The notes under the pieces are model-generated. The model made no database searches, was not told where the DNA came from, and saw only the letters and a program-made list of their open reading frames with translations. Positions 1,527 through 64,000 of a stretch of DNA of 64,000 nucleotides are shown piece after piece (position 1 is the first letter of the stretch; every line of letters begins with the position of its first letter). A program made the translations under genes and the position numbers. The stretch comes from Naegleria lovaniensis (Eukaryota > Heterolobosea > Eutetramitea > Acrasida > Naegleriidae). The stretch spans positions 654,340-718,339 of the forward strand of contig NW_025407835.1 of the NCBI RefSeq assembly GCF_003324165.1, given 5' to 3'.

Positions 1527-2543
1527 ATGTCAACACAACCACTGATCGTGTGTCTCACTGATTTCACCTCAAAATCCACATCAACCGATCATCATGTAAC
1601 ACTTAAATTTCTTAAAGATAAACTACGTACTCGAAGATTGTGTGAATTTTCGATGAATTTTGAATCACCTCCTCCGAATGAACACAATCAATTACTAAAT
1701 TTACCAAAATCATGCTTTCCTCTCAATGTACGAATTTCCTACTCGTGTCAATGTATTCTCGTTTCCGATCTGTGTGGTGATCGTATTCATGTCTTTGATT
1801 ATGTGAGTAAGAAACTGAAAACCTCCATTCTCGTTTCTTCTCGACCAAGATATATATGTATTGAAGAGAATTACGATGGGAAAAGAAACGATGCTCTTTT
1901 GTATGATTGTAGCAAGGGAACGACTGTGTACAAGTATAATTTGGAAAAGTTACTGGAACATGCCACGAAAAATAAGAATGAAAGAAACGAAAACTGTTTA
2001 TGGACATCTACACATGCGTTATTGAAAGCTGCCAAAGAACTGGCTACCAATTTTCGAAAAGTTTTCATTTGTAATCATTATGGTAACAGTGTACTAGTAT
2101 TGAATTCACAAAATGGACAATTTTTGGAAAATATTTCATTGAATGAACAAATTTCAAACCCCATTGGAATTGATTTGACGACTTTTGGAGACGTTATCAT
2201 AAGTGAAGAAGCGAATCGAATTCAAATTTTGAGACGCGATATTGACAATGGACAATGGATACGAGTGCATGCTTATGGCAGTAAGGGATTTGAATATGGA
2301 TATCACTTTAACAAACCTTCTGGTCTTGTTTTTGATAAAACATCCAATCGTATTCTCGTATGCGATGCTCTCAACAATCGAATTCTAGTATTTGCTCAGA
2401 ATGGAACTCTTGAAAAGTCGTTTGGAAGTTTTGGCTCTAAGAGAAATGAATTCTTTTATCCTGAAGGCATGTGTTTGGATACTGTTTTTGGAAAACTCTA
2501 CGTGTGCGATACGCATAACAAACGAGTACTCATCTTCCAATAA
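1527..2543 (+). CDS. Cytosolic NHL-repeat beta-propeller protein
   Basis: Intronless, 338 aa. The start is ATG 1527, placed directly after six A residues; an in-frame TTG upstream is not needed. There is no signal peptide. From about residue 70 onward the protein has NHL-type blades with motifs such as ILVCDALNNRILVF and LYVCDTHNKRVLIF, the last closing the propeller at the C-terminus. It is a paralogue of the genes at 13622-14677 and 42583-43785, sharing the block order and an acidic IEENYDG-like loop with the former. NHL propellers bind protein or RNA, but nothing here fixes a partner. Confidence is high for the fold, none for function. Confidence 0.85.
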   Translation: MSTQPLIVCLTDFTSKSTSTDHHVTLKFLKDKLRTRRLCEFSMNFESPPPNEHNQLLNLPKSCFPLNVRISYSCQCILVSDLCGDRIHVFDYVSKKLKTSILVSSRPRYICIEENYDGKRNDALLYDCSKGTTVYKYNLEKLLEHATKNKNERNENCLWTSTHALLKAAKELATNFRKVFICNHYGNSVLVLNSQNGQFLENISLNEQISNPIGIDLTTFGDVIISEEANRIQILRRDIDNGQWIRVHAYGSKGFEYGYHFNKPSGLVFDKTSNRILVCDALNNRILVFAQNGTLEKSFGSFGSKRNEFFYPEGMCLDTVFGKLYVCDTHNKRVLIFQ

Positions 2544-13621: not shown

Positions 13622-14677
13622 ATGACATTGTTTGATCCCCTCAGTAGGTCATCGGAAGATGGTGATTGTGCACGATTGAAATTGATCAGTAATCTTTGTA
13701 ATTATTCTCATCATTTGGATGAATTCTATTCCAAGTTACAAAGTAAAATGAGAAATGATCGAAAAAGAGTTCATGGCTTTCCGATGCATCATGAAATGAT
13801 CTTCACCTTTTCTCCTGATACATCGGATCCTAACATTTACATAAGAAATGATAACACAAACGTTAGTGATCCCACTGATATTCAAATATCGTACAGGTTG
13901 AATTTGATTTTAGTCAGTGATTATGAAGGAAGTAAAATTGAAGTATTTGATTTGGAAACGAAAAAGCACAAGAATAGTATATTTCCATTGCCACAAGAAA
14001 AGCCTCGCCATTTTTGCATTGAAGAGAATTATGATGGACAAAATAATGAGGCAATCATTTTGTGTTGTAAAGACGATATTCTCAAATATGATTTGAAACA
14101 ATTTCTTACAATTGGCAAACAAGAAGTTGGAAAAATTTGGGCAAGTTCTAAATGTGACTGGGCTCAAGGACTTGCCATCTCATACTCAACACGACAATTA
14201 TATGTTTGTGATCATGGACAAAGTAATATTGTGATTCTAAATTTAATATCTGGAGAGTTCGTTTATCAATTCCCAGTGAACGAAGCTTTTGGCTTGGCCT
14301 TGACTAATGATGAACAATATTTGGTGGTAACTCAAGTAAATTCATGCAACACTGTGCAAATTTTCAAAAAAGAGTCCTTCAATGCAGTGAATGGTGAAAC
14401 AGAATGGAAATCCATCAAAACATTGGGAATAGTACAAAACGAGCATGGTTCAAAATTTCACAATCCTTGTGCTGTGATTTTTGATCGATTTTCTCGTAAT
14501 CTATTAGTTTGCGATAATGGAAATCGTCGAATTCAGGTTTTTTCATTCAATACTTTTGAACCGGTTGGTGTTTTTGGGGATGTTGATAACCAATTTTTTC
14601 GATATTTTCCCTACTCTCTGTGTTTAAACGAATTGACTGGAGAATTATTGGTTTGTCAATGCGAAGAGTGCTTTTAA
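13622..14677 (+). CDS. NHL-repeat beta-propeller protein with altered C-terminus
   Basis: Intronless, 351 aa, start ATG 13622 directly after eight A residues. It is a paralogue of the genes at 1527-2543 and 42583-43785: shared block order, IEENYDGQNNE loop, and blades such as LYVCDHGQSNIVIL and LLVCDNGNRRIQVF. It has no signal peptide. The last blade is broken: where the paralogues end in DTHN(K/Q)RVxIF, this one reads GELLVCQCEECF and stops. Another frame over the same bases would give MRRVLL, so a small deletion or indel probably removed the closing strand. Fold call is strong; function unknown. Confidence 0.82.
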   Translation: MTLFDPLSRSSEDGDCARLKLISNLCNYSHHLDEFYSKLQSKMRNDRKRVHGFPMHHEMIFTFSPDTSDPNIYIRNDNTNVSDPTDIQISYRLNLILVSDYEGSKIEVFDLETKKHKNSIFPLPQEKPRHFCIEENYDGQNNEAIILCCKDDILKYDLKQFLTIGKQEVGKIWASSKCDWAQGLAISYSTRQLYVCDHGQSNIVILNLISGEFVYQFPVNEAFGLALTNDEQYLVVTQVNSCNTVQIFKKESFNAVNGETEWKSIKTLGIVQNEHGSKFHNPCAVIFDRFSRNLLVCDNGNRRIQVFSFNTFEPVGVFGDVDNQFFRYFPYSLCLNELTGELLVCQCEECF

Positions 14678-15375
14678 AAGTAAACGAGGAATTTTCACTG
14701 GAATTTACTTCACACATCCAGAACTGGAAGCAATAACAGCTTATGCAAAGCCCATGCCAACTGGAAATGTTTGCTGCAGGACATTAATTGGCAATGAATG
14801 AAGAATCTTGTAACAACGTTAAAAAGAGCAACTCGAGCTAAAAAAAAAGTTAAAAAATTTGTCCCCACCGAGGATCGAACTCGGGACCTCTCGCGTGTGA
14901 GGCGAGCGATCTAACCACTGATCTATGAAGACATTCACGAACAAAACACTTTGGAAGGGATATTGGTTGTTATGATGCAAGTTTGGTGTCTGTTGAGTGC
15001 AATTCCGTATAGAGCCTGTATTTTCATTTTGATCGTTCTCAATAATACAATTTAATATCAGATCATTGTCTTTCGGTCGTTTTAATCTTGTTTGATTGGT
15101 TTAAACGCCTAACCAACCTCGCTGATTGAATGCAAGGAATCAAGGTTTGATTTCCAAAGACTCCTATCGGTGCTTTTCTAAATTAATCGAAATGAGCTGT
15201 CTGAAAGAAACACACCGAGGAGCAAGTACAACTCGTGTCTCCTGAAAACCATTGGTTCTTCAAGGAGTTAACCGGAGTTGTTTTTGTTGAAATTCTAATG
15301 CCAACTGTCAACAATATTGTCCAAGCAAAAAAAATAATCATTACTTTGATTCGGCAGTTATTAAACTCTCTCAAC
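14678..15375. other. Intergenic 14678-15375 containing the tRNA gene
   Basis: Apart from tRNA-Val on the minus strand, nothing else is supported. In-frame non-ATG or extra codons run upstream of the CC-repeat gene from 15235 (GTG) and ATG 15298, but the domain match begins at ATG 15376. Confidence 0.5.
14861..14932 (-). tRNA. tRNA-Val (anticodon CAC)
   Basis: A 72-nt minus-strand cloverleaf. The acceptor stem pairs GTCTTCA with TGGGGAC (with G-T pairs), the D stem is GATC/GATC, the anticodon stem CTCGC/GCGAG with loop CTCACAC giving anticodon CAC (Val, GUG codons), and the T arm CCGAG-TTCGATC-CTCGG. There is no intron and no encoded CCA. A T-run follows the 3' end on the minus strand (the A-rich stretch at about 14841-14857 on the plus strand), serving as Pol III terminator. 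Confidence 0.95.
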
Positions 15376-17658
15376 ATGTCTTCACAACAACCAACCCTTC
15401 CATTCGAGCTCTCTACATGGATCTCTCGTGTCAATACTCACTTATCCTTCCTTCGTAGCATTTCCTCTCAATCCGAACTCTATTTCAATGAAGAACGATT
15501 ACAGATCATGATCCATCTCTACAATTTAATGATGCCACTCGTGTCCAAGTATGGTGCTCCACGTGTATGGCTCCCTGAATGCGTCCAATGGATCATGCAT
15601 TGTCATTTGCTTCATCCCATTGATTTTATGAAAGATTGTGAAAATTGTTTTGGACATTTAATCTTGTTGAATACTGAAGCACACAAATTGGATGCTACTC
15701 AAACCATGCAATGGTTCCAACATGAGTATGGATGCTCCTTTGTACAAGCAGTTCAAAATGCTCTTGTCAATCGAAAGGATGAAGAGTTGAAATTTTCGTT
15801 GAAAATGTTCAAACCTTCTCGTGACTTGGTGAAAGCAGCCATGAATCAACAAACTTTCACCACTCAATGTAAGCAAGTGTTTGGTGAGAAGATTGAGAAT
15901 CCCATTCAAATTTCATTCATGTTGGACAAGTATTACAAATTTATCCTCGCCATCAAGGACATGATGTTGAAAACTGAAGATCCAAATTCCAATGTTTCAG
16001 AATTGGAATTCATGTTAGTCCCAACATTGGAAATTGATTTAATGTGGCACACTCATTTGAGATATCCTTTTGATTATTTGACCTTTGTCAAGAATGAAAC
16101 TGGATACTTGTTAAATCATGAGGATGACATGAGTGACTTGGATGAAGAATTTGAAAAGACAAAAACATTTTGGAAATCCAAATATGGTGAGGATTATGTT
16201 CGTCCACTCCACAATGAGAATGCCAAAGGAGATTGTTGCAATGTAGCAAAGGAAAATGAGAAAATTGTAAATGTCTTGCAACCAGAAATGACTCAAAAAG
16301 GAGAATGTTGTAATGCAGCTCAACAAAATGTGAATTCACAAGTTTTGGAGCCAACCATGAATCAAAAAGGTGATTGTTGCAATGTTGCACGACAAAATTC
16401 TCAACAAGCAATTACTCCCTTGTCTATGAATCAAAAAGGTGAATGTTGCAATGCAGCTCAACAAAATGTCAAACTTGACATTCCATTGACGGGAATGAAT
16501 CAAAAAGGTGAATGTTGTAATGCTGCACAACAAAATGTGAATGCACCAATCTTGTCCATGGGAATGAATCAAAAAGGAGAATGTTGTAACGTTGCCAAAC
16601 AAAATACCAAAATCTCGTCCATTACTCCTCTCTCAATGAATCAAAAAGGAGAATGTTGTAACGTTGCTCTGAACAATGTCAATGCTCAAGTTTTAGAACT
16701 CTCCATGAATCAAAAAGGAGAATGTTGCAATGTGGCCAAACTCAATTCCAAGGTCACTTCAGTCACTCCTTTAGCAATGAATCAAAAAGGTGAATGTTGC
16801 AATGCAGCTCAGAAAAATGTCAAACTTGACATTCCATTGACGGGAATGAATCAAAAAGGTGAATGTTGTAATGCTGCACAACAAAATGTGAATGCACCAA
16901 TCTTATCTTTGGGAATGAATCAAAAAGGTGAATGCTGTAATGTTGCACGTCAGAATTCTCAACAAGAAATAATTCCCTTGTCTATGAATCAGAAAGGAGA
17001 ATGTTGCAACGCTTCCAAGCAAAACATGAATGCACCAGTCTTGTCTATGGGAATGAACCAAAAAGGAGAATGTTGCAACGCTGCCAAACAAAATGTCAAA
17101 CTTGACATTCCATCGATGGGAATGAATCAAAAAGGAGAATGTTGTAATGCAGCGAAGCAAAATGTGAAACTCAATGTGTTGAATCTCTCAATGAATCAAA
17201 AAGGAAATTGTTGCAATGCAGCTCAACAAAATCTCAAACTCGACATTCTTCCACTGTCCATGAATCAAAAAGCAGAATGCTGCAACGTTTCATTGCAAAA
17301 TGAAATGATCAAGACTCTCATTCCATTGGCCATGAATCAAAAAGGAGATTGTTGTAATGTTTCACAACAAAATGTCAAGAGTCAAGTACTTTCAATGGGA
17401 ATGAATCAAAAAGGAGAATGTTGCAACGCTGCTCAACAAAACGTGAATGCACCAATCTTGTATATGGGAATGAATCAAAAAGGGGATTGTTGCAATGTTG
17501 CCAAGAATAATGAGTTGTGTTTGAATGTTCTTGAATTGGGAATGAATCAGAAAGCAGAGTGTTGTAATGTCGCTCTTCAAAATACCAAATTTGAGAATGC
17601 ATTACTGATTGAGGTTGGAGCCAATCAGGGTCTCTTCCAACAAGCGGTCATGTGTTAA
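15376..17658 (+). CDS. DUF1399/glycine-rich-domain-like protein with twenty 23-residue CC repeats
   Basis: Intronless, 760 aa. I start at ATG 15376 (MSSQQPTLPF) because the domain begins there; ATG 15298 is in frame. Residues 1-270 resemble the DUF1399 domain of glycine-rich domain-containing proteins: LSFLRSISSQ, then PTLEIDLMWHTHLRYPFDY, and a closing FWKSKYGEDY. Residues 282-748 are twenty tandem units of about 23 aa, each starting MNQKGECCN followed by a variable amphipathic spacer (for example VKLDIPLTG), so the array alone holds 40 vicinal cysteines. The protein ends ANQGLFQQAVMC. It has no signal peptide. I know no family with this repeat; metal binding, disulfide switching or palmitoylation of the CC pairs are inferences. 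Confidence 0.85.
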   Translation: MSSQQPTLPFELSTWISRVNTHLSFLRSISSQSELYFNEERLQIMIHLYNLMMPLVSKYGAPRVWLPECVQWIMHCHLLHPIDFMKDCENCFGHLILLNTEAHKLDATQTMQWFQHEYGCSFVQAVQNALVNRKDEELKFSLKMFKPSRDLVKAAMNQQTFTTQCKQVFGEKIENPIQISFMLDKYYKFILAIKDMMLKTEDPNSNVSELEFMLVPTLEIDLMWHTHLRYPFDYLTFVKNETGYLLNHEDDMSDLDEEFEKTKTFWKSKYGEDYVRPLHNENAKGDCCNVAKENEKIVNVLQPEMTQKGECCNAAQQNVNSQVLEPTMNQKGDCCNVARQNSQQAITPLSMNQKGECCNAAQQNVKLDIPLTGMNQKGECCNAAQQNVNAPILSMGMNQKGECCNVAKQNTKISSITPLSMNQKGECCNVALNNVNAQVLELSMNQKGECCNVAKLNSKVTSVTPLAMNQKGECCNAAQKNVKLDIPLTGMNQKGECCNAAQQNVNAPILSLGMNQKGECCNVARQNSQQEIIPLSMNQKGECCNASKQNMNAPVLSMGMNQKGECCNAAKQNVKLDIPSMGMNQKGECCNAAKQNVKLNVLNLSMNQKGNCCNAAQQNLKLDILPLSMNQKAECCNVSLQNEMIKTLIPLAMNQKGDCCNVSQQNVKSQVLSMGMNQKGECCNAAQQNVNAPILYMGMNQKGDCCNVAKNNELCLNVLELGMNQKAECCNVALQNTKFENALLIEVGANQGLFQQAVMC
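16219..17619 (+). repeat. Coding tandem array, 20 units of about 69 bp (MNQKGECCN repeat)
   Basis: Twenty in-frame units, each with a CCN core; spacers vary in size by one or two codons, mostly 14 residues. The cores vary little (KGECC, KGDCC, KGNCC, KAECC), the spacers more. Units 4-5 (about 16441-16555) and 9-10 (about 16800-16915) are nearly identical at the DNA level with only about five differences, showing recent block duplication inside the array. Confidence 0.95.
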
Positions 17659-42582: not shown

Positions 42583-43785
42583 TCAAACGAAAATTTGAAC
42601 TCTTTGATTATGGGTGTCACAAAGAAACAATTCTCCTGTCAGTCGATTCAAACAGTGACCATCAGGCAACATGAATTGAGATTCTCCTCGACCTTTGCTC
42701 CCGAAACATTTCACTACTGTTCCATCATGTAAATTCATTACTTGCATTCTGCAGTTCATGTGATCGATCACGAGTAATAGATCTGAGCAGCTGTCAAAAG
42801 TCATTCCTCGTGGAAATGAAAAACATCCTACTGTGGATCCATGAGTTCCAACAGTACGAATGCATTTCCACACAGGCGCTTCTTTGATGCTCGAGTTGTT
42901 GCCAAGTTCATCTGAATTTTCTATCATTCCACTATTTCTGTAAATGTTAATACCACTCGAACTATTGTTACTCACAATCAAATCTCCATTAATGGTATTG
43001 AATTCCAAACCCCAAGGACACCCTTCAACGTAAAATGTTTGTAAAATTTGTCCATTCTCAGAGTCAAGAATTTTCACACAACGATCTGCAAAGTCTCCAA
43101 CAAAGACTTGATTAGGAAATTTTTGCTTGAAAAGTGCAATTCCAGTAACCACTTTAAAATTTGAGCACTTCCATATCATGTCACTCTTTTTGCCATTCTT
43201 CAATATTTCATTTAAATTGTATTTCGAAATGGAATTTCCGTGAGAGGCAAAATATAAGGCATCTTCTTGAACTGTCTCAGTGGCTCGTGAATATTCAGTA
43301 TTTTCGCTATTGAACAACTCCTCAATATATAAATGTCCAGCTTGAACTGTTGAAGAATTTTTAAAATTCATGATTAATTGTTTGGATTCCAAGTCAAAAA
43401 TTAAAATTCGGTCATTACCATTATCGCTCACGCAAAAACATTGGTGCGTGTAGCTAATTTTCACGTCGAGAGGATAACTGAACGTCAATTGTTTGTTCGA
43501 GTGGGCTGCGTACAAAGCACGACTCTTGTGAAATGACATCTTGTCAATTGTGAAAATGTTTTTAAAAGCGAGAGAGAAGGGCTTGTTCCTGGTTTTTCTC
43601 AACTTGGTTTTAAGCTTATCCAACAGCAAACCTCTCGAGGACAACTCGTTCATTGAGGTATAAAATTCATCATTTAATGATGCTTCATGAATGTCATTGT
43701 CAATCAGTACAAGTGTCACAGCTTGTGCATGAATGTTGAAAAAGAAATGAGGATCTTCATGGCTGGAGAGAGAATTTACAAGCAT
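42583..43785 (-). CDS. NHL-repeat beta-propeller protein
   Basis: Intronless, 400 aa, start ATG 43785. It is the third soluble NHL paralogue in the window. Blades include CFCVSDNGNDRILIFDL, QVFVGDFADRCVKIL, DLIVSNNSSSGINIY, LLLVIDHMNCRMQVM and the closing ELFLCDTHNQRVQIFV. The N-terminal 90 residues are helical/charged and lack a signal peptide. It keeps the intact final blade that is missing from the gene at 13622. Function unknown. Confidence 0.85.
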   Translation of the reverse strand: MLVNSLSSHEDPHFFFNIHAQAVTLVLIDNDIHEASLNDEFYTSMNELSSRGLLLDKLKTKLRKTRNKPFSLAFKNIFTIDKMSFHKSRALYAAHSNKQLTFSYPLDVKISYTHQCFCVSDNGNDRILIFDLESKQLIMNFKNSSTVQAGHLYIEELFNSENTEYSRATETVQEDALYFASHGNSISKYNLNEILKNGKKSDMIWKCSNFKVVTGIALFKQKFPNQVFVGDFADRCVKILDSENGQILQTFYVEGCPWGLEFNTINGDLIVSNNSSSGINIYRNSGMIENSDELGNNSSIKEAPVWKCIRTVGTHGSTVGCFSFPRGMTFDSCSDLLLVIDHMNCRMQVMNLHDGTVVKCFGSKGRGESQFMLPDGHCLNRLTGELFLCDTHNQRVQIFV

Positions 43786-51274: not shown

Positions 51275-52429
51275 TCACTCAGAATCAACAAGATTTTGAC
51301 AGATTGGCTTGTAATTTGTTTTCTCTCCATTAACGTACAGAAAATCAGTAGCCTTTGTAAATTCCAAATTTTTCCAATTCCATGGAAATGAGATATAAAA
51401 CAATATCCTTTTTGATAGATCGATTTTGGTAAGGGAATAGAATTTGTAATACACTTACCATTTACCCCAACCATTTCCATGGAGAACTGCTGGATAATTA
51501 CTGTGAGGCACAAACTCTAACCAGAAGTCAGCATGTGTTGCCTTCGCCTCTTCTTCATGCACTGGTGGGTTATAGCTACCTCGAACCAGTATCTCATGTG
51601 TCTGTACCTCCAGCAGTGACAAAAACAAATCACCCTTGTAATCCAAAGTGAGATAATCTCGTGCTTGAGTCAACCAAACATATGCAGTCATTCCTTGATC
51701 ATCAAATAAATCATCCTTGATATCTTGAGGCAATGCAAGAATTTTCTTATACAAGTCCAATAATGCTGATTGACGACCTATAAAACCACCAGAGTTTAGG
51801 TATTTAAATCTCGTTGGAGATGATGGGTATTCTTTTTGACAAAAAGAGTTACCTCCCCATCGTTTTATAGCACTCTCAACCACTCCAAATGGATGACAAT
51901 TCATTTCTGCGTTGAAAACAATTGAATAATTGGAAAAGTGATTTACAAATTTTGAAATAATAGCTTCTGCATGTTGCAATACAACAACATCATACGCATC
52001 CAAGAACATCAAAATGGCATTTGGATTTTTGACTTTTTCTAAGGCTTCGAAAATGATATCAATTTTTTGTGAGAGAGTGAACTTCTCCATTCCATATCCT
52101 AAAATATTGAAATTGATTCCATTTCTCAAAGCAGAATACAATAATTTGCAAGCATTTTCATTGAGTTTTGTTGCAATGGTGATGGGATAAAATTCTTCTC
52201 CAAGAACATTCATTGGAACCATTTCCGTAAACGATTTGAAGCTAGTTGGTAGAAATGGTAGTTGGGAAACCTCTTCAAACGGTTCCTGCTGTCCGTCATT
52301 AATTTCATTCTCTTCCGAAACACTGGATATTGATCTGAGCTTGAAGATGAACACCAACAAACACACGTTTGCCAAAACGAACATGACGACCACGAACTTG
52401 AGAAGCCTAAAAGGAGAGAATTGAGGCAT
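51275..52429 (-). CDS. PLOD-type glycosyltransferase, type II membrane protein (copy 1, with intron)
   Basis: Minus-strand exons 51459..52429 and 51275..51407, 367 aa. The start is ATG 52429 after six A residues; longer upstream frames lack support. Residues 8-32 are a signal anchor (LLKFVVVMFVLANVCLLVFIF). The domain resembles the glycosyltransferase part of procollagen lysyl hydroxylases: ITIATKLNENACKLL, MFLDAYDVVVL (DxxD metal motif), FNAEMNCHPFG, LNSGGFIGR, DDQGMTAYVW, LHGNGWGKW. It probably acts in the Golgi/ER lumen on a glycoprotein. The 51-nt intron falls in GKW; the copy at 57036 has no intron there. Donor and acceptor were chosen by matching that copy. Confidence 0.85.
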
Positions 52430-53057
52430 TTTTTTAATTGTCCCGACTGATCTCCCGCGCATTAAGGTCACAAACGATCTCATCATCTCAATCAGGAGAA
52501 CGATAACGAGCAAGTTGAAATCTTTTTGAGGGTTATTCGAAAGACATAATAAGGAGCAAGTCCAGTTGCGAAGCTTCGCCTCGCACAAAACACTGAAGAT
52601 TGCTCTTTTAAGCCGTTTTTAAAGAGCAATGATGAAGATTGCTCTTTTAAGCCGTTTTTTTCCTTAATTTTCTCTTTTCCAGATCGGCATTCATTAACAA
52701 GTGTTGTGGTTTTGGCCATCTCAAAATCAATTCCCACCACCCCATTCAATTTCATTAAGGAAGACCGATCTCAAAACTCCGTTCCGAGTTAATTGAGCAC
52801 AGTATCTCCCTCCAACACATTTTTTGCAAAGTTTGAATTCAAGTATTTCCAGATTCACAACGGGTAGCTCACGGAATTTGGCAAAAACCCCAAAAAGTTG
52901 GTGTGACGGCATCTGTGGCACCCCTGTGCGAAGAAGACTTGCTCGTCTTATTTGTATTAAGGATGGTATCAAAAGAGCGAGCGAACTCAGTTGATGACCT
53001 CTCACAGTACTAACACAGTTTGATAACAAAGATTTTTTCGCGAATAACACAAAAAAA
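52430..53057. other. Divergent intergenic 52430-53057 with a repeat/hairpin
   Basis: This lies between the glycosyltransferase (minus) and the receptor kinase (plus). It holds a 39-bp-period direct repeat with an internal hairpin at 52594-52659. No ORF is supported. Confidence 0.55.
52594..52659. repeat. 39-bp tandem direct repeat (1.7 copies) with 10-bp inverted repeat
   Basis: A 27-bp word starting TGAAGATTGCTCTTTTAAG occurs exactly at 52594-52620 and 52633-52659. Between and within them ATTGCTCTTT (52599-52608) pairs with AAAGAGCAAT (52621-52630) across a 12-nt loop, a perfect 10-bp stem. Confidence 0.9.
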
Positions 53058-57035: not shown

Positions 57036-58283
57036 ATGTCTCAACTCAAATCGAGGACACAAACATCATCACGAAAAACGCTCATCATTATTGTGGTCTT
57101 GTTCTTCTTTGCGAACGGTGGTTTATTTTTATTTGTCATCAATCGGCGGTCTTCGGCTTCGAATCTCTCCTCTGATAATGAGATCCAAGATGATTTACCA
57201 ATGATTAGTGACTCGGATCTGCATGATAACTTTCCTTCGGACGATACCATCACCTTCCTGAAAAACCAATTCGTTTCATTGGAGAAAGAAAATAATGAAA
57301 AGGATAACAAGGACAAATCAACTATGGAACAAACTTCCGAGTCGGAGACAAGGTCAATCACACCGACCAACTCAAACACTGCTTCAACTCGAATGGTTCC
57401 AATGAATGTTCTTGGAGAAGAATTTTACCCAATCACCATTGCAACAAAACTCAATGAAAATGCTTGCAAATTATTGTATTCTGCTTTGAGAAATGGAATC
57501 AATTTCAATATTTTAGGATATGGAATGGAGAAGTTCACTCTCTCACAAAAAATTGACATTACTTTTGAAGAAATTGAAAAAGTGAACAATCCAAATGCCA
57601 TTTTGATGTTCTTGGATGCGTATGATGTTGTTGTATTGCAACATGCAGAAGCTATTATTTCAAAATTTTTGAAAAAGTTTCCAGGTTACTCAGCGGTCTA
57701 TAATGCAGAAATGAATTGTCATCCATTTGGTGTGGTTGAGAGTGCAAAGAAACGATGGGGAGGAGATCCGTATTGTTTGAGTCAATACCCACCATCTCCC
57801 AATAGATTTCGATATTTGAACAGTGGAGCTTTTATAGGTCGTCAATCTGCATTATTGGATCTGTACAAGAAAATTCTTGCATTGCCTCAAGATATCAAGG
57901 ATGATTTATTTGATGATCAAGGAATGACTGCATATGTTTGGTTGACTCAAGCACGAGATTATCTCACTTTGGATTACAAGGGTGATTTGTTTTTATCACT
58001 TTTGGAAGTGCAAGCTCATGAATTTCGAGTTCATAAACAGAATAATCCACCTGAACGAAACGAAGACGTCACAGCAACACATGCTGACTTTTGGTTGGAA
58101 TTTAACACTCATCACAACTATCCAGCAACTCTTCATGGAAATGGATGGGGTAAATGGACCTTATTTTCTGTGGAAGCAACATTGCCGTGGAATTGGAAGT
58201 CTTTGGATTTTACCAAAGCCAGTGATTTTGTTTGGATTAACGGAGAGAAGACAAGCTTCAACTCTATTTGTTCCAAATATTAA
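57036..58283 (+). CDS. PLOD-type glycosyltransferase, type II membrane protein (copy 2, intronless)
   Basis: Intronless, 415 aa, start ATG 57036 after six A residues and only 71 bp beyond the receptor-kinase stop. Residues 15-34 form the signal anchor (IIIVVLFFFANGGLFLFVI). A charged Ser/Asp/Asn stem of about 90 residues follows. The catalytic domain matches copy 1, with a block of over 50 residues identical (for example VPMNVLGEEFYPITIATKL), MFLDAYDVVVL near residue 195, YLNSGAFIGRQSALL and LHGNGWGKW, ending FTKASDFVWINGEKTSFNSI. It is longer than copy 1 in the stem. Donor sugar and acceptor are inferred only by family. Confidence 0.87.
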   Translation: MSQLKSRTQTSSRKTLIIIVVLFFFANGGLFLFVINRRSSASNLSSDNEIQDDLPMISDSDLHDNFPSDDTITFLKNQFVSLEKENNEKDNKDKSTMEQTSESETRSITPTNSNTASTRMVPMNVLGEEFYPITIATKLNENACKLLYSALRNGINFNILGYGMEKFTLSQKIDITFEEIEKVNNPNAILMFLDAYDVVVLQHAEAIISKFLKKFPGYSAVYNAEMNCHPFGVVESAKKRWGGDPYCLSQYPPSPNRFRYLNSGAFIGRQSALLDLYKKILALPQDIKDDLFDDQGMTAYVWLTQARDYLTLDYKGDLFLSLLEVQAHEFRVHKQNNPPERNEDVTATHADFWLEFNTHHNYPATLHGNGWGKWTLFSVEATLPWNWKSLDFTKASDFVWINGEKTSFNSICSKY

Positions 58284-62300: not shown

Positions 62301-63401
62301 ACGATTACGGATGAACCATTCACAAACAACAGCAAGTATGGTTCAGTGTAAAACTGTTCAGCAAGTAAGTGATGGAATCATGATCGATACAATTTCACAA
62401 TTTGAACTTGTATTCGTCCTGGTCTGCAACTATTTTGGATCTTCCATCGAATGAATTCAATGTTTAATGATACATTCATCAGTATGTCATGAGATTCTAA
62501 CTCTGATAGATGTACTTTATCACTGAGTGTTTATTCTTGTGTCATCTGTATCGAGTTGGTGGAGCGCTCTCATCTGTTGTATGATTCATTGCAAGAAGTG
62601 ACCTTGTTATATTTTGCATTTGTTTGCTGTGATTCATTGTTGAAAACAAATGTTCAATATGACGATTTTCATGATTTGTGCATGTACTCTATGGATTATG
62701 TTCAAGGTGTGTTCATGTTTGTGGTCGTCATCTCATTTAGTGAATTTCGTTCAACAAGTGATCATGTCGATAGTTGATGGATTGTATCATTTTGAATAAA
62801 TCATGATGAACTACATTGATAGTGATCATCTTTATGTGTGTTTCAAATGTGTTGTTTGATTCATTTGACTAATCTCTACAGACTGTACTGACCATAACAT
62901 TTGGCGGATGAAACATAAGATGAAAAGTGTGTGGTAGATTTCATGTTTTCCAAATTCTAATATTCATTGGAGTACATGTTGACCATGATGATGACATGAT
63001 ATGGGATTGATTTCGGGGATCCATCTTTTATGCTCATTGTGAATTTTGCAATAACATGTTAAATAGTTGATGGAGTTGTGCACCACAGAGATGACATGAA
63101 TTTTGATTATTCTATCATCATCATGAAGTGATCATGGTATATTATATATTATATCAATTTGAAGTGTTGTTCGTTGTTGTGTGCATGATGTGATATGAAT
63201 GTTTGAAAAAAATGTGACATGTTCTTTGTATGTTGTGATGATGTTGACCACTCCTTATGAAAGTGATACTACATCTTTACAATAGCTAGTACAACATATC
63301 TATGAAGTTATATTGAATGTCTATTGATACTTGTGGAGATAATTGATAAATGTTGACTTTGAATGTTTTTAATTTGGTCTTGGTCTTGGACATTTCTGAT
63401 T

Positions 63402-63473
63402 GGGTTTATTGGGTTTATTGGGTTTATTGGGTTTATTGGGTTTATTGGGTTTATTGGGTTTATTGGGTTTATT
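63402..63473 (+). repeat. GGGTTTATT tandem array (8 copies)
   Basis: Eight exact 9-bp units abut the inner edge of the telomere. The unit contains the telomeric GGGTTT plus ATT, so it looks like a related, internally amplified variant marking the junction. Confidence 0.97.
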
Positions 63474-64000
63474 GGGTTTTGGGTTTGGGTTTGGGTTTGG
63501 GTTTGGGTTTGGGTTTGGGTTTGGGTTTGGGTTTGGGTTTGGGTTTGGGTTTGGGTTTGGTTGGGTTTGGGTTTGGGTTTGGGTTTGGGTTTGGGTTTGG
63601 GTTTGGGTTTGGGTTTGGGTTTGGGTTTGGGTTTGGGTTTGGGTTTGGGTTTGGTTTGGGTTTGGGTTTGGGTTTGGGTTTGGGTTTGGGTTTGGGTTTG
63701 GGTTTGGGTTTGGGTTTGGTTTGGGTTTGGGTTTGGTTTGGGTTTGGTTTGGGTTTGGGTTTGGGTTTGGGTTTGGGTTTGGGTTTGGGTTTGGGTTTGG
63801 GTTTGGGTTTGGGTTTGGGTTTGGGTTTGGGTTTGGGTTTGGGTTTGGGTTTGGGTTTGGGTTTGGGTTTGGGTTTGGGTTTGGGTTTGGTTGGGTTTGG
63901 GTTTGGGTTTGGGTTTGGGTTTGGGTTTGGGTTTGGGTTTGGGTTTGGGTTTGGGTTTGGGTTTGGGTTTGGGTTTGGGTTGGGTTTGGGTTTGGGTTTT
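63474..64000 (+). repeat. Telomere, (GGGTTT)n
   Basis: About 527 bp of GGGTTT, G-rich strand 5' to 3' toward the window end, as expected at a right chromosome end. Occasional slips (GGTTGGG, GGTTTGGTTTGGG, one GGGTTTTGGG at the start) break the hexamer. The array reaches the last base, so its length here is a minimum. Confidence 0.97.

What the first reader, a model, noticed from the sequence alone, without database searches (positions are those of the whole stretch)
16219..17619. Twenty-unit vicinal-cysteine repeat (MNQKGECCN) fused to a DUF1399-type domain
The array is strikingly regular: every unit has an invariant CCN core after MNQKG, with 40 cysteines in CC pairs at about 23-residue spacing and amphipathic spacers. 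No signal peptide means the cysteines sit in a reducing cytosol. I know of no described family with this repeat. The spacing and Met/Cys content suggest polyvalent metal binding, redox switching or clustered palmitoylation, but none is shown. This is the best candidate for something undescribed in the window.
Basis: partly seen in the sequence, partly recalled or inferred. Interest (0 to 1): 0.82.

Follow-up and report, generated by a model that had tools for sequence, protein, structure and literature searches.

The report
Amoeba protein with twenty double-cysteine repeats
An amoeba gene encodes a protein whose tail repeats a paired-cysteine motif twenty times; its head belongs to a widespread family whose bacterial members often carry cysteine-bearing tails too, so the repeats look like an extreme, probably metal- or chemistry-related version of a shared design.

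Summary
The array is real: one 760-aa ORF (15376-17658 +) with 20 units, all CCN, spaced 23 (14 of 19) or 24 aa (5 of 19). It is under protein-level selection: pN/pS is 0.087 in MNQKGECCN and 0.80 in the spacer, and 0 of 1,000 bootstraps reverse this. The repeat was found nowhere else in the collections searched and once in this genome. Eukaryote databases could not be searched.

The head is a PF07173 (GRDP-like, formerly DUF1399) domain built from two copies of a [WM]-H-x-H module. The new point comes from bacterial relatives of the module: 34 of 47 have at least two Cys in their last 40 residues, against 4 of 31 neighbouring genes. Six of 43 carry tandem Cys arrays. One also holds a TIGR04222 domain, a family proposed as MNIO/RiPP substrates (PMC12452194). 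The array therefore looks like an amoeba version of a recurrent "module plus C-terminal Cys tail".

Most likely function: polyvalent thiol ligand for soft metals (0.4, inferred). A eukaryotic multi-core RiPP-like precursor is the boldest reading (0.18); no MNIO was found in this genome.

The parts
15376..17658 (+). Whole coding sequence, 760 aa, uninterrupted: GRDP-like head plus 20-unit Cys-Cys array plus short tail
   Evidence: one copy found in own genome
15565..15747 (+). First M-H-x-H module (aa 64-124, HCHLLHPIDFMKDCENCFGHLI)
   Evidence: internal duplication, 27% identity over 52 columns with module 2, two-sequence blastp E 2e-5
15625..16080 (+). Pfam PF07173 GRDP-like (formerly DUF1399) match, aa 84-235
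   Evidence: 36.5 bits, cut-off 22.7; 40.4 bits in the whole-genome search
16015..16203 (+). Second WHxH module (aa 214-276, LVPTLEIDLMWHTHL...), homologous to bacterial single-module proteins
   Evidence: hhalign to an alignment of 14 bacterial proteins, probability 96.1, E 3.3e-9
16216..17610 (+). Twenty 23/24-aa units, consensus MNQKGECCN-[AV]-A-x-Q-N plus a 9-10 aa hydrophobic-patterned spacer
   Evidence: pN/pS 0.087 core and 0.80 spacer
17611..17655 (+). C-terminal tail EVGANQGLFQQAVMC, ends in Cys
15298..15375 (+). Possible 26-aa N-terminal extension from an upstream ATG (not favoured)
   Evidence: codon log-odds -0.08 per codon; another frame scores higher, +0.17

Best explanation
The array is the C-terminal Cys 'cargo' of a GRDP-like (WHxH-module) protein. 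SHOWN: the head is a duplicated module; the tail is 20 vicinal-Cys cassettes kept by purifying selection; bacterial relatives of the module repeatedly carry C-terminal Cys tails or arrays with unrelated flanking motifs. INFERRED: what is common to the family is the display of several thiols behind a folded head, and in the amoeba cytosol each MNQKG(E/D)CCN cassette is a vicinal-dithiol site (with Met1 as a possible extra ligand) that binds a soft metal such as Cu(I), Zn(II) or As(III)/Hg(II). The 20 sites would act as a buffer or store, and the regular 23/24-aa spacing with a hydrophobic spacer would let cassettes pack or share a metal. The duplicated head would position the array or dock it to a partner.
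For: CC is invariant in 20 of 20 cassettes while synonymous sites in the core are highly diverged (pS 0.605, pN 0.052). pN/pS is 0.087 (95% 0.03-0.18) in the core and 0.80 (0.73-0.88) in the spacer, with 0 of 1,000 bootstraps reversed. Met1 is present in 19 of 20 units. In bacterial module proteins, 34 of 47 have at least 2 Cys in the last 40 aa against 4 of 31 neighbours, Fisher p 2e-7. Six tandem Cys arrays were found among 43 proteins. The two Cupriavidus orthologues (63.7% identical) each keep four YCAR, one YCAL and a last Cys while the spacers change. L045 joins the module to TIGR04222 and a CGGCGGGD tail, and Gloeothece L071, annotated TIGR04222, ends in GGCGCGC. TIGR04222 proteins are proposed substrates of MNIO enzymes, and MNIO-modified bufferins chelate copper (PMC12452194, passages). 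AtGRDP2's tail has interspersed Cys (PMC4299439, passage).
Against: No metal, redox or expression data. Cys density is low (42 of 480 residues from the first unit to the end, 8.75%) with no CxC and no CxxC. K4, N9 and N14 are as invariant as the Cys although they are not soft-metal ligands, so the motif may be a binding or structural motif instead. A copper study in N. gruberi and N. fowleri does not contain 'cysteine', 'glycine-rich' or 'thiol' in its main text (PMC9035749). The bacterial arrays found have one Cys per unit, not CC. The 47 bacterial proteins are related to one another, and the alignment used to find 30 of them (A7) itself contained some Cys tails, so the p-value overstates the case. 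Six of 47 have no Cys in the last 40 aa.
Confidence: 0.4

Rival explanations
1. Multi-core RiPP-like precursor: the WHxH modules are the leader or recognition domain and the 20 cassettes are cores whose Cys are enzymatically modified, as may hold for some bacterial relatives.
For: Conserved core with variable spacer, repeated after a leader-like domain. Bacterial module genes lie beside SAM methyltransferase and TauD-type genes in two loci (A. ramasamyi L031; G448 L067, where a pentapeptide-repeat protein and a UvrA-like ATPase follow), before a methyltransferase in Gloeothece and Stanieria, and downstream of a radical SAM gene in Streptomyces. Link to TIGR04222.
Against: No MNIO (PF05114) in the amoeba genome. 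No dibasic site in the 480-aa array and tail. No signal peptide seen. No modification gene noticed beside it in the window (four neighbouring ORFs scanned, NHL only). In four of five bacterial genome neighbourhoods the nine neighbouring ORFs scanned show no modifying enzyme. MNIO genes occur in 17 of 32 module-bearing bacterial genomes, but none was found within 60 kb of the module gene on its contig. A core kept nearly identical 20 times would give one product, not many.
Confidence: 0.18
2. Multivalent docking scaffold: MNQKGECCN-x-A-x-Q-N is a peptide motif bound by a partner protein, and twenty copies give avidity. CC is part of the binding epitope or a redox switch on it.
For: K4, N9, N14 and near-invariant M1, N2, Q3, G5 are conserved along with CC; the spacer is far less constrained.
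Against: Near-constant spacing (23/24) and I, V or L at a fixed place before the next unit (19 of 20) suggest more than loose linkers. No partner is known. Bacterial arrays share the Cys but not the rest of the motif.
Confidence: 0.2
3. Structural repeat: units stack as a 23-residue beta-type solenoid or an N/Q-rich self-assembling fibre, with CC and Asn in ladders and optional disulfide locking under oxidation.
For: Hydrophobic pattern of the spacer; invariant Asn and Cys at a near-fixed period; 127 of 480 residues are N or Q.
Against: AlphaFold2 on six units gives mean pLDDT 46.8 and pTM 0.41, which is uninformative. No PDB relative of the unit profile.
Confidence: 0.15

Closest known systems
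GRDP / DUF1399 proteins (Pfam PF07173), e.g. Arabidopsis AtGRDP2
   Same: PF07173 domain at the N-terminus and a low-complexity, Cys-containing C-terminal tail (AtGRDP2 aa 713-766; PMC4299439 passage).
   Different: The tail here is a regular N/Q-rich MNQKGECCN array, not glycine-rich. The RNP-1 sequence given for AtGRDP2 is absent and no RRM-type family appears among the Pfam hits.
Bacterial single-module GRDP-like proteins with Cys arrays (L032, L035, L062, L069, L070, L073)
   Same: WHxH-type module followed by tandem Cys repeats; L035 even has a 23-aa period.
   Different: One module, one Cys per repeat, unrelated motif, fewer units.
Module proteins with CGGCGG-type tails, and the TIGR04222 (near_uncomplex) family
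   Same: Their module is homologous to the bacterial GRDP-like module (hhalign 99.3, E 3e-20); C-terminal Cys.
   Different: The TIGR04222 proteins have membrane segments and Ser/Gly-rich tails predicted periplasmic (PMC12452194, passage). TIGR04222 itself is the part after the module and is absent here.
Metallothioneins
   Same: Many reduced Cys expected in the cytosol.
   Different: Much lower Cys density, no CxC, large folded head. The class is recalled; no relative was found.

Membership tests
GRDP-like (PF07173, formerly DUF1399) | Profile match above the curated cut-off | tested here: met
   36.5 bits against 22.7
GRDP-like (PF07173, formerly DUF1399) | [IVL]-D-x-x-W-H-x-H module shared with bacterial members | tested here: met
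   hhalign probability 96.1, E 3.3e-9 to 14 bacterial proteins
Plant-type GRDP | RNP-1 motif plus glycine-rich tail (PMC4299439 passage) | tested here: not met
   Gly is 29 of 480 residues after the head, 18 of them the G5 of a unit; the AtGRDP2 RNP-1 sequence is absent
TIGR04222 (MNIO-associated membrane proteins) | TIGR04222 profile match | tested here: not met
   No NCBIfam hit up to E 1
RiPP precursor modified by MNIO | MNIO enzyme in the genome | tested here: not met
   PF05114: no match in own genome, searched without regard to introns; controls ring in Caulobacter and Deinobacterium
RiPP precursor (any class) | Cys or other residues enzymatically modified | not testable with these tools
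   Needs mass spectrometry
RiPP precursor (any class) | Core released by proteolysis at recognisable sites | tested here: inconclusive
   0 dibasic sites in 480 aa; other proteases not excluded
Metallothionein | Dense CxC/CxxC clusters | tested here: not met
   0 CxC and 0 CxxC; CC pairs 23/24 aa apart; 8.75% Cys
Metallothionein | Binds metal through its Cys | not testable with these tools
   Needs the purified protein

The most novel reading that the evidence does not exclude
The WHxH (GRDP-like) module is an ancient carrier or leader domain for C-terminal Cys peptides in bacteria and eukaryotes, and this gene is a eukaryotic multi-core version: a cytosolic precursor or scaffold with 20 near-identical double-Cys cores that are modified or metallated as a series, with enzymes unlike MNIO.
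Probability: 0.18. Interest if true: 0.85.

Novelty: new variant of a known kind. Interest (0 to 1): 0.6.

Why it matters
PF07173 is a domain without a known molecular function, seen here in an amoeba and in bacteria and described in plants (PMC4299439). The recurrent pairing of its module with C-terminal Cys tails and arrays gives it a testable common theme (thiol display, metal handling or a modified-peptide carrier) and ties plant GRDPs to bacterial proteins suspected of being RiPP precursors. The amoeba array, with 20 near-identical cassettes, is the largest such array seen here and a convenient substrate for a direct metal-binding or mass-spectrometry test.

Tried and rejected
Repeat searches: units in viral contigs (no stretch, 12 stretches, none a relative), genome contigs (18 stretches, none a relative), tblastn in phages (no match), unit profile against the PDB (none). 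The Pfam side hit (PF22460, below cut-off), the weak PHROG hits and the PDB hits (OspA, TOM40) are taken as chance.

Pattern DLxWHTHQ in viral and genome contigs: 2 and 18 stretches. On reading the frames, none looks like a GRDP relative. PF07173 in the genomes of 11 of those loci: 0 of 11.

Head against viral contigs: 2 and 71 pattern stretches, none a relative. Head against plasmids with the amoeba query: one weak hit, Piscirickettsia, E 0.2; the same place came back more strongly with bacterial queries (E 1e-7 and 1e-8).

Structure prediction: six units on a 3-row self-alignment, pLDDT 46.8; head alone, pLDDT 40.3. Both are too poor to use, so no fold search was run. A 15-window self-alignment (A2) was dropped because overlapping windows fell back into native register.

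MNIO as the modifying enzyme: not found in this genome and not near the module genes in the 32 bacterial genomes searched.

Palmitoylation: not pursued (polar context, no anchor seen).

One search read the four cyanobacterial loci in wrong frames. Its tail counts are replaced; its array count is used only for the other 43.

Full report
What is there. The window lies at G000:C15:654340-718339 of a 30,690,286-bp, 97-contig genome. Size, GC near 37% and gene content fit Naegleria, most likely N. lovaniensis (published assembly 30,838,059 bp, 111 contigs, 37% GC; PMC6125883, passages). The ORF 15376-17658 (+) encodes 760 aa without interruption. It has a 280-aa head, 20 units from 16216 to 17610, and a 15-aa tail ending in Cys. 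In the own genome I found one copy of the array, of the head (plus one match at E 0.2) and of PF07173.

The array is a selected protein feature. CCN is in 20 of 20 units, K4 and N14 are invariant, M1, N2 and Q3 are each in 19 of 20 and G5 in 18 of 20. Codons for the invariant residues vary (for example TGC/TGT 11:9 at the second Cys), although K4 is AAA throughout. pN/pS is 0.087 in the nine-residue core (bootstrap 0.03-0.18) and 0.80 in the last nine spacer codons (0.73-0.88); dropping six near-duplicate units leaves 0.14 and 0.82. pS near 0.6 in the core means the units are not merely recent copies, although segmental duplication has also occurred (units 4 and 9 97%, 5 and 10 96% identical). 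Only the annotated frame has coding-like codon use in the array (+0.27 against +0.01 and +0.04). The spacer is not featureless: I, V or L stands fifth before the next unit in 19 of 20, and L or M second before it in 16 of 20.

The repeat itself has no relative in what could be searched: Pfam and NCBIfam, PHROGs, PDB by sequence and by profile, viral contigs, 84,980 prokaryote genomes by pattern plus tblastn, and phages. The pattern step needs exact short words, so distant relatives could be missed. Eukaryotic proteins could not be searched, so uniqueness among eukaryotes is not claimed.

The head is a duplicated module. PF07173 matches aa 84-235 (36.5 bits, cut-off 22.7). Two segments, starting HCHLLHPIDFMKDCENCFGHLI and HTHLRYPFDYLTFVKNETGYLL, are copies of each other (27% over 52 columns). 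The second aligns to 14 bacterial proteins with hhalign probability 96.1, E 3.3e-9. Bacterial members were reached through 386 genomes of the phylum of a Limnothrix MAG (4 with a PF07173 match, 2 of them over the cut-off), tblastn on plasmids (27 and 36 records) and 398 genomes of the phylum of a betaproteobacterial MAG (28 with a match to alignment A7, 34 matches, 30 held as loci).

The tails of the relatives are the main new evidence. I read 47 bacterial module proteins: 30 loci (30 of 34 matches), 4, and 13 plasmid records opened (5, 8). Of these, 41 of 47 have at least one Cys in the last 40 residues and 34 of 47 at least two; among 31 annotated neighbouring genes the counts are 14 and 4 (Fisher p 2e-7). 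The proteins are related, and the alignment used included some Cys tails, so the p-value overstates the case. Tails fall into types: short Cys tails (L034, L036: HACH.P.SCACR.PGACK); Gly/Ser/Cys tails, many ending CGGCGGD or similar (much of L039-L060); and tandem arrays: TAYCAGPHIGKLAASGDSAVSGD-type units in L035, 8 units spaced exactly 23 aa, AFCAGPH in a gene 440 bp further on (L062), YCAR in two Cupriavidus orthologues (L032, L069), DCLREAKA (L070) and WCSLEA (L073). Array detection (a Cys-centred pentamer at least three times) covers the 43 proteins read in the right frame: 6 of 43. In seven full units of L035 pN/pS is about 0.05 in the motif and 0.34 in the spacer, the same trend as in the amoeba.

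The module is also shared with the CGGCGG-tail proteins (hhalign 99.3, E 3e-20). One of them, L045, contains a full TIGR04222 domain (136.8 bits), and a Gloeothece module protein (L071) is annotated TIGR04222 and ends GGCGCGC. Antoine et al. 2025 (PMC12452194; outline and passages read) report TIGR04222 as 40% of more than 1,000 signal-peptide-less Cys proteins encoded before MNIO genes. They describe C-terminal Ser/Gly-rich regions with Cys, and consider subsets of the family likely MNIO substrates; they also state that more than a quarter lack C-proximal Cys and that many are not linked to MNIO. 'GRDP' and 'DUF1399' do not occur in its main text. My searches for the link listed no paper that joins GRDP-like domains to Cys arrays or RiPPs by title or abstract start; one search listed 8 of 692 papers.

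Neighbours in bacteria are suggestive only. A SAM methyltransferase and a TauD-type gene sit beside the module gene in A. ramasamyi (TauD 26.4 bits on a cut-off piece, just under its threshold of 27) and in G448 (TauD 29 bits, methyltransferase 48.8 bits), where a pentapeptide-repeat protein and a UvrA-like ATPase follow. A methyltransferase follows in Gloeothece and, one gene on, in Stanieria. A radical SAM gene lies upstream in Streptomyces. Of the 13 plasmid loci, 10 are annotated, and 4 of 10 have such a gene. Of five genome neighbourhoods opened, G448 has them; in the other four the nine nearby ORFs scanned gave a histidine kinase, an epimerase, an antiporter, a transhydrogenase subunit and five without a family. 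MNIO genes exist in 17 of 32 module-bearing genomes, but none was found within 60 kb of the module gene on its contig (nearest 66 kb, G690). The amoeba genome has none.

How it most likely works. Across the relatives read, the constant parts are the module and, in most, C-terminal thiols; the peptide around the Cys changes completely. That argues that the thiols are the point. In a reducing cytosol, unmodified vicinal dithiols bind soft metals (general knowledge), and 20 copies give capacity. This step is inferred. The invariant K4, N9 and N14 are not explained by it and leave room for a docking or structural motif. A RiPP-like fate is possible but lacks a known enzyme, dibasic cleavage sites and neighbours here.

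What remains unknown: expression, metal content, Cys state, structure (both AlphaFold2 runs were too poor), and whether other Naegleria keep the array.

Noticed in passing
window 63399-63999: Chromosome end: nine copies of ATTGGGTTT, then (TTGGGT)n for over 500 bases, telomere-like.
   Followed up: no
window 14859-14933 (-): tRNA-Val(cac) just upstream of the gene.
   Followed up: no
window 1527-2543 (+), 13622-14677 (+), 42583-43785 (-): Similar-looking beta-propeller ORFs by eye; only 13622-14674 was scanned (NHL).
   Followed up: partly
window 51455-52486 (-) and 57036-58283 (+): Two ORFs share a long identical stretch (GEEFYPITIATKLNENACKLLYSALRNGINFNILGYGMEKFTLSQKID), an inverted duplicated pair.
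   Followed up: no
L067 (G448:C13): Module gene, TauD-type gene, SAM methyltransferase, pentapeptide-repeat protein and UvrA-like ATPase in a row; might be a self-immune peptide antibiotic cluster.
   Followed up: partly
L035, L062, L032, L069: Cys spacings of 10 and 23 recur in arrays with different motifs; the amoeba array has 23/24. May be chance.
   Followed up: no
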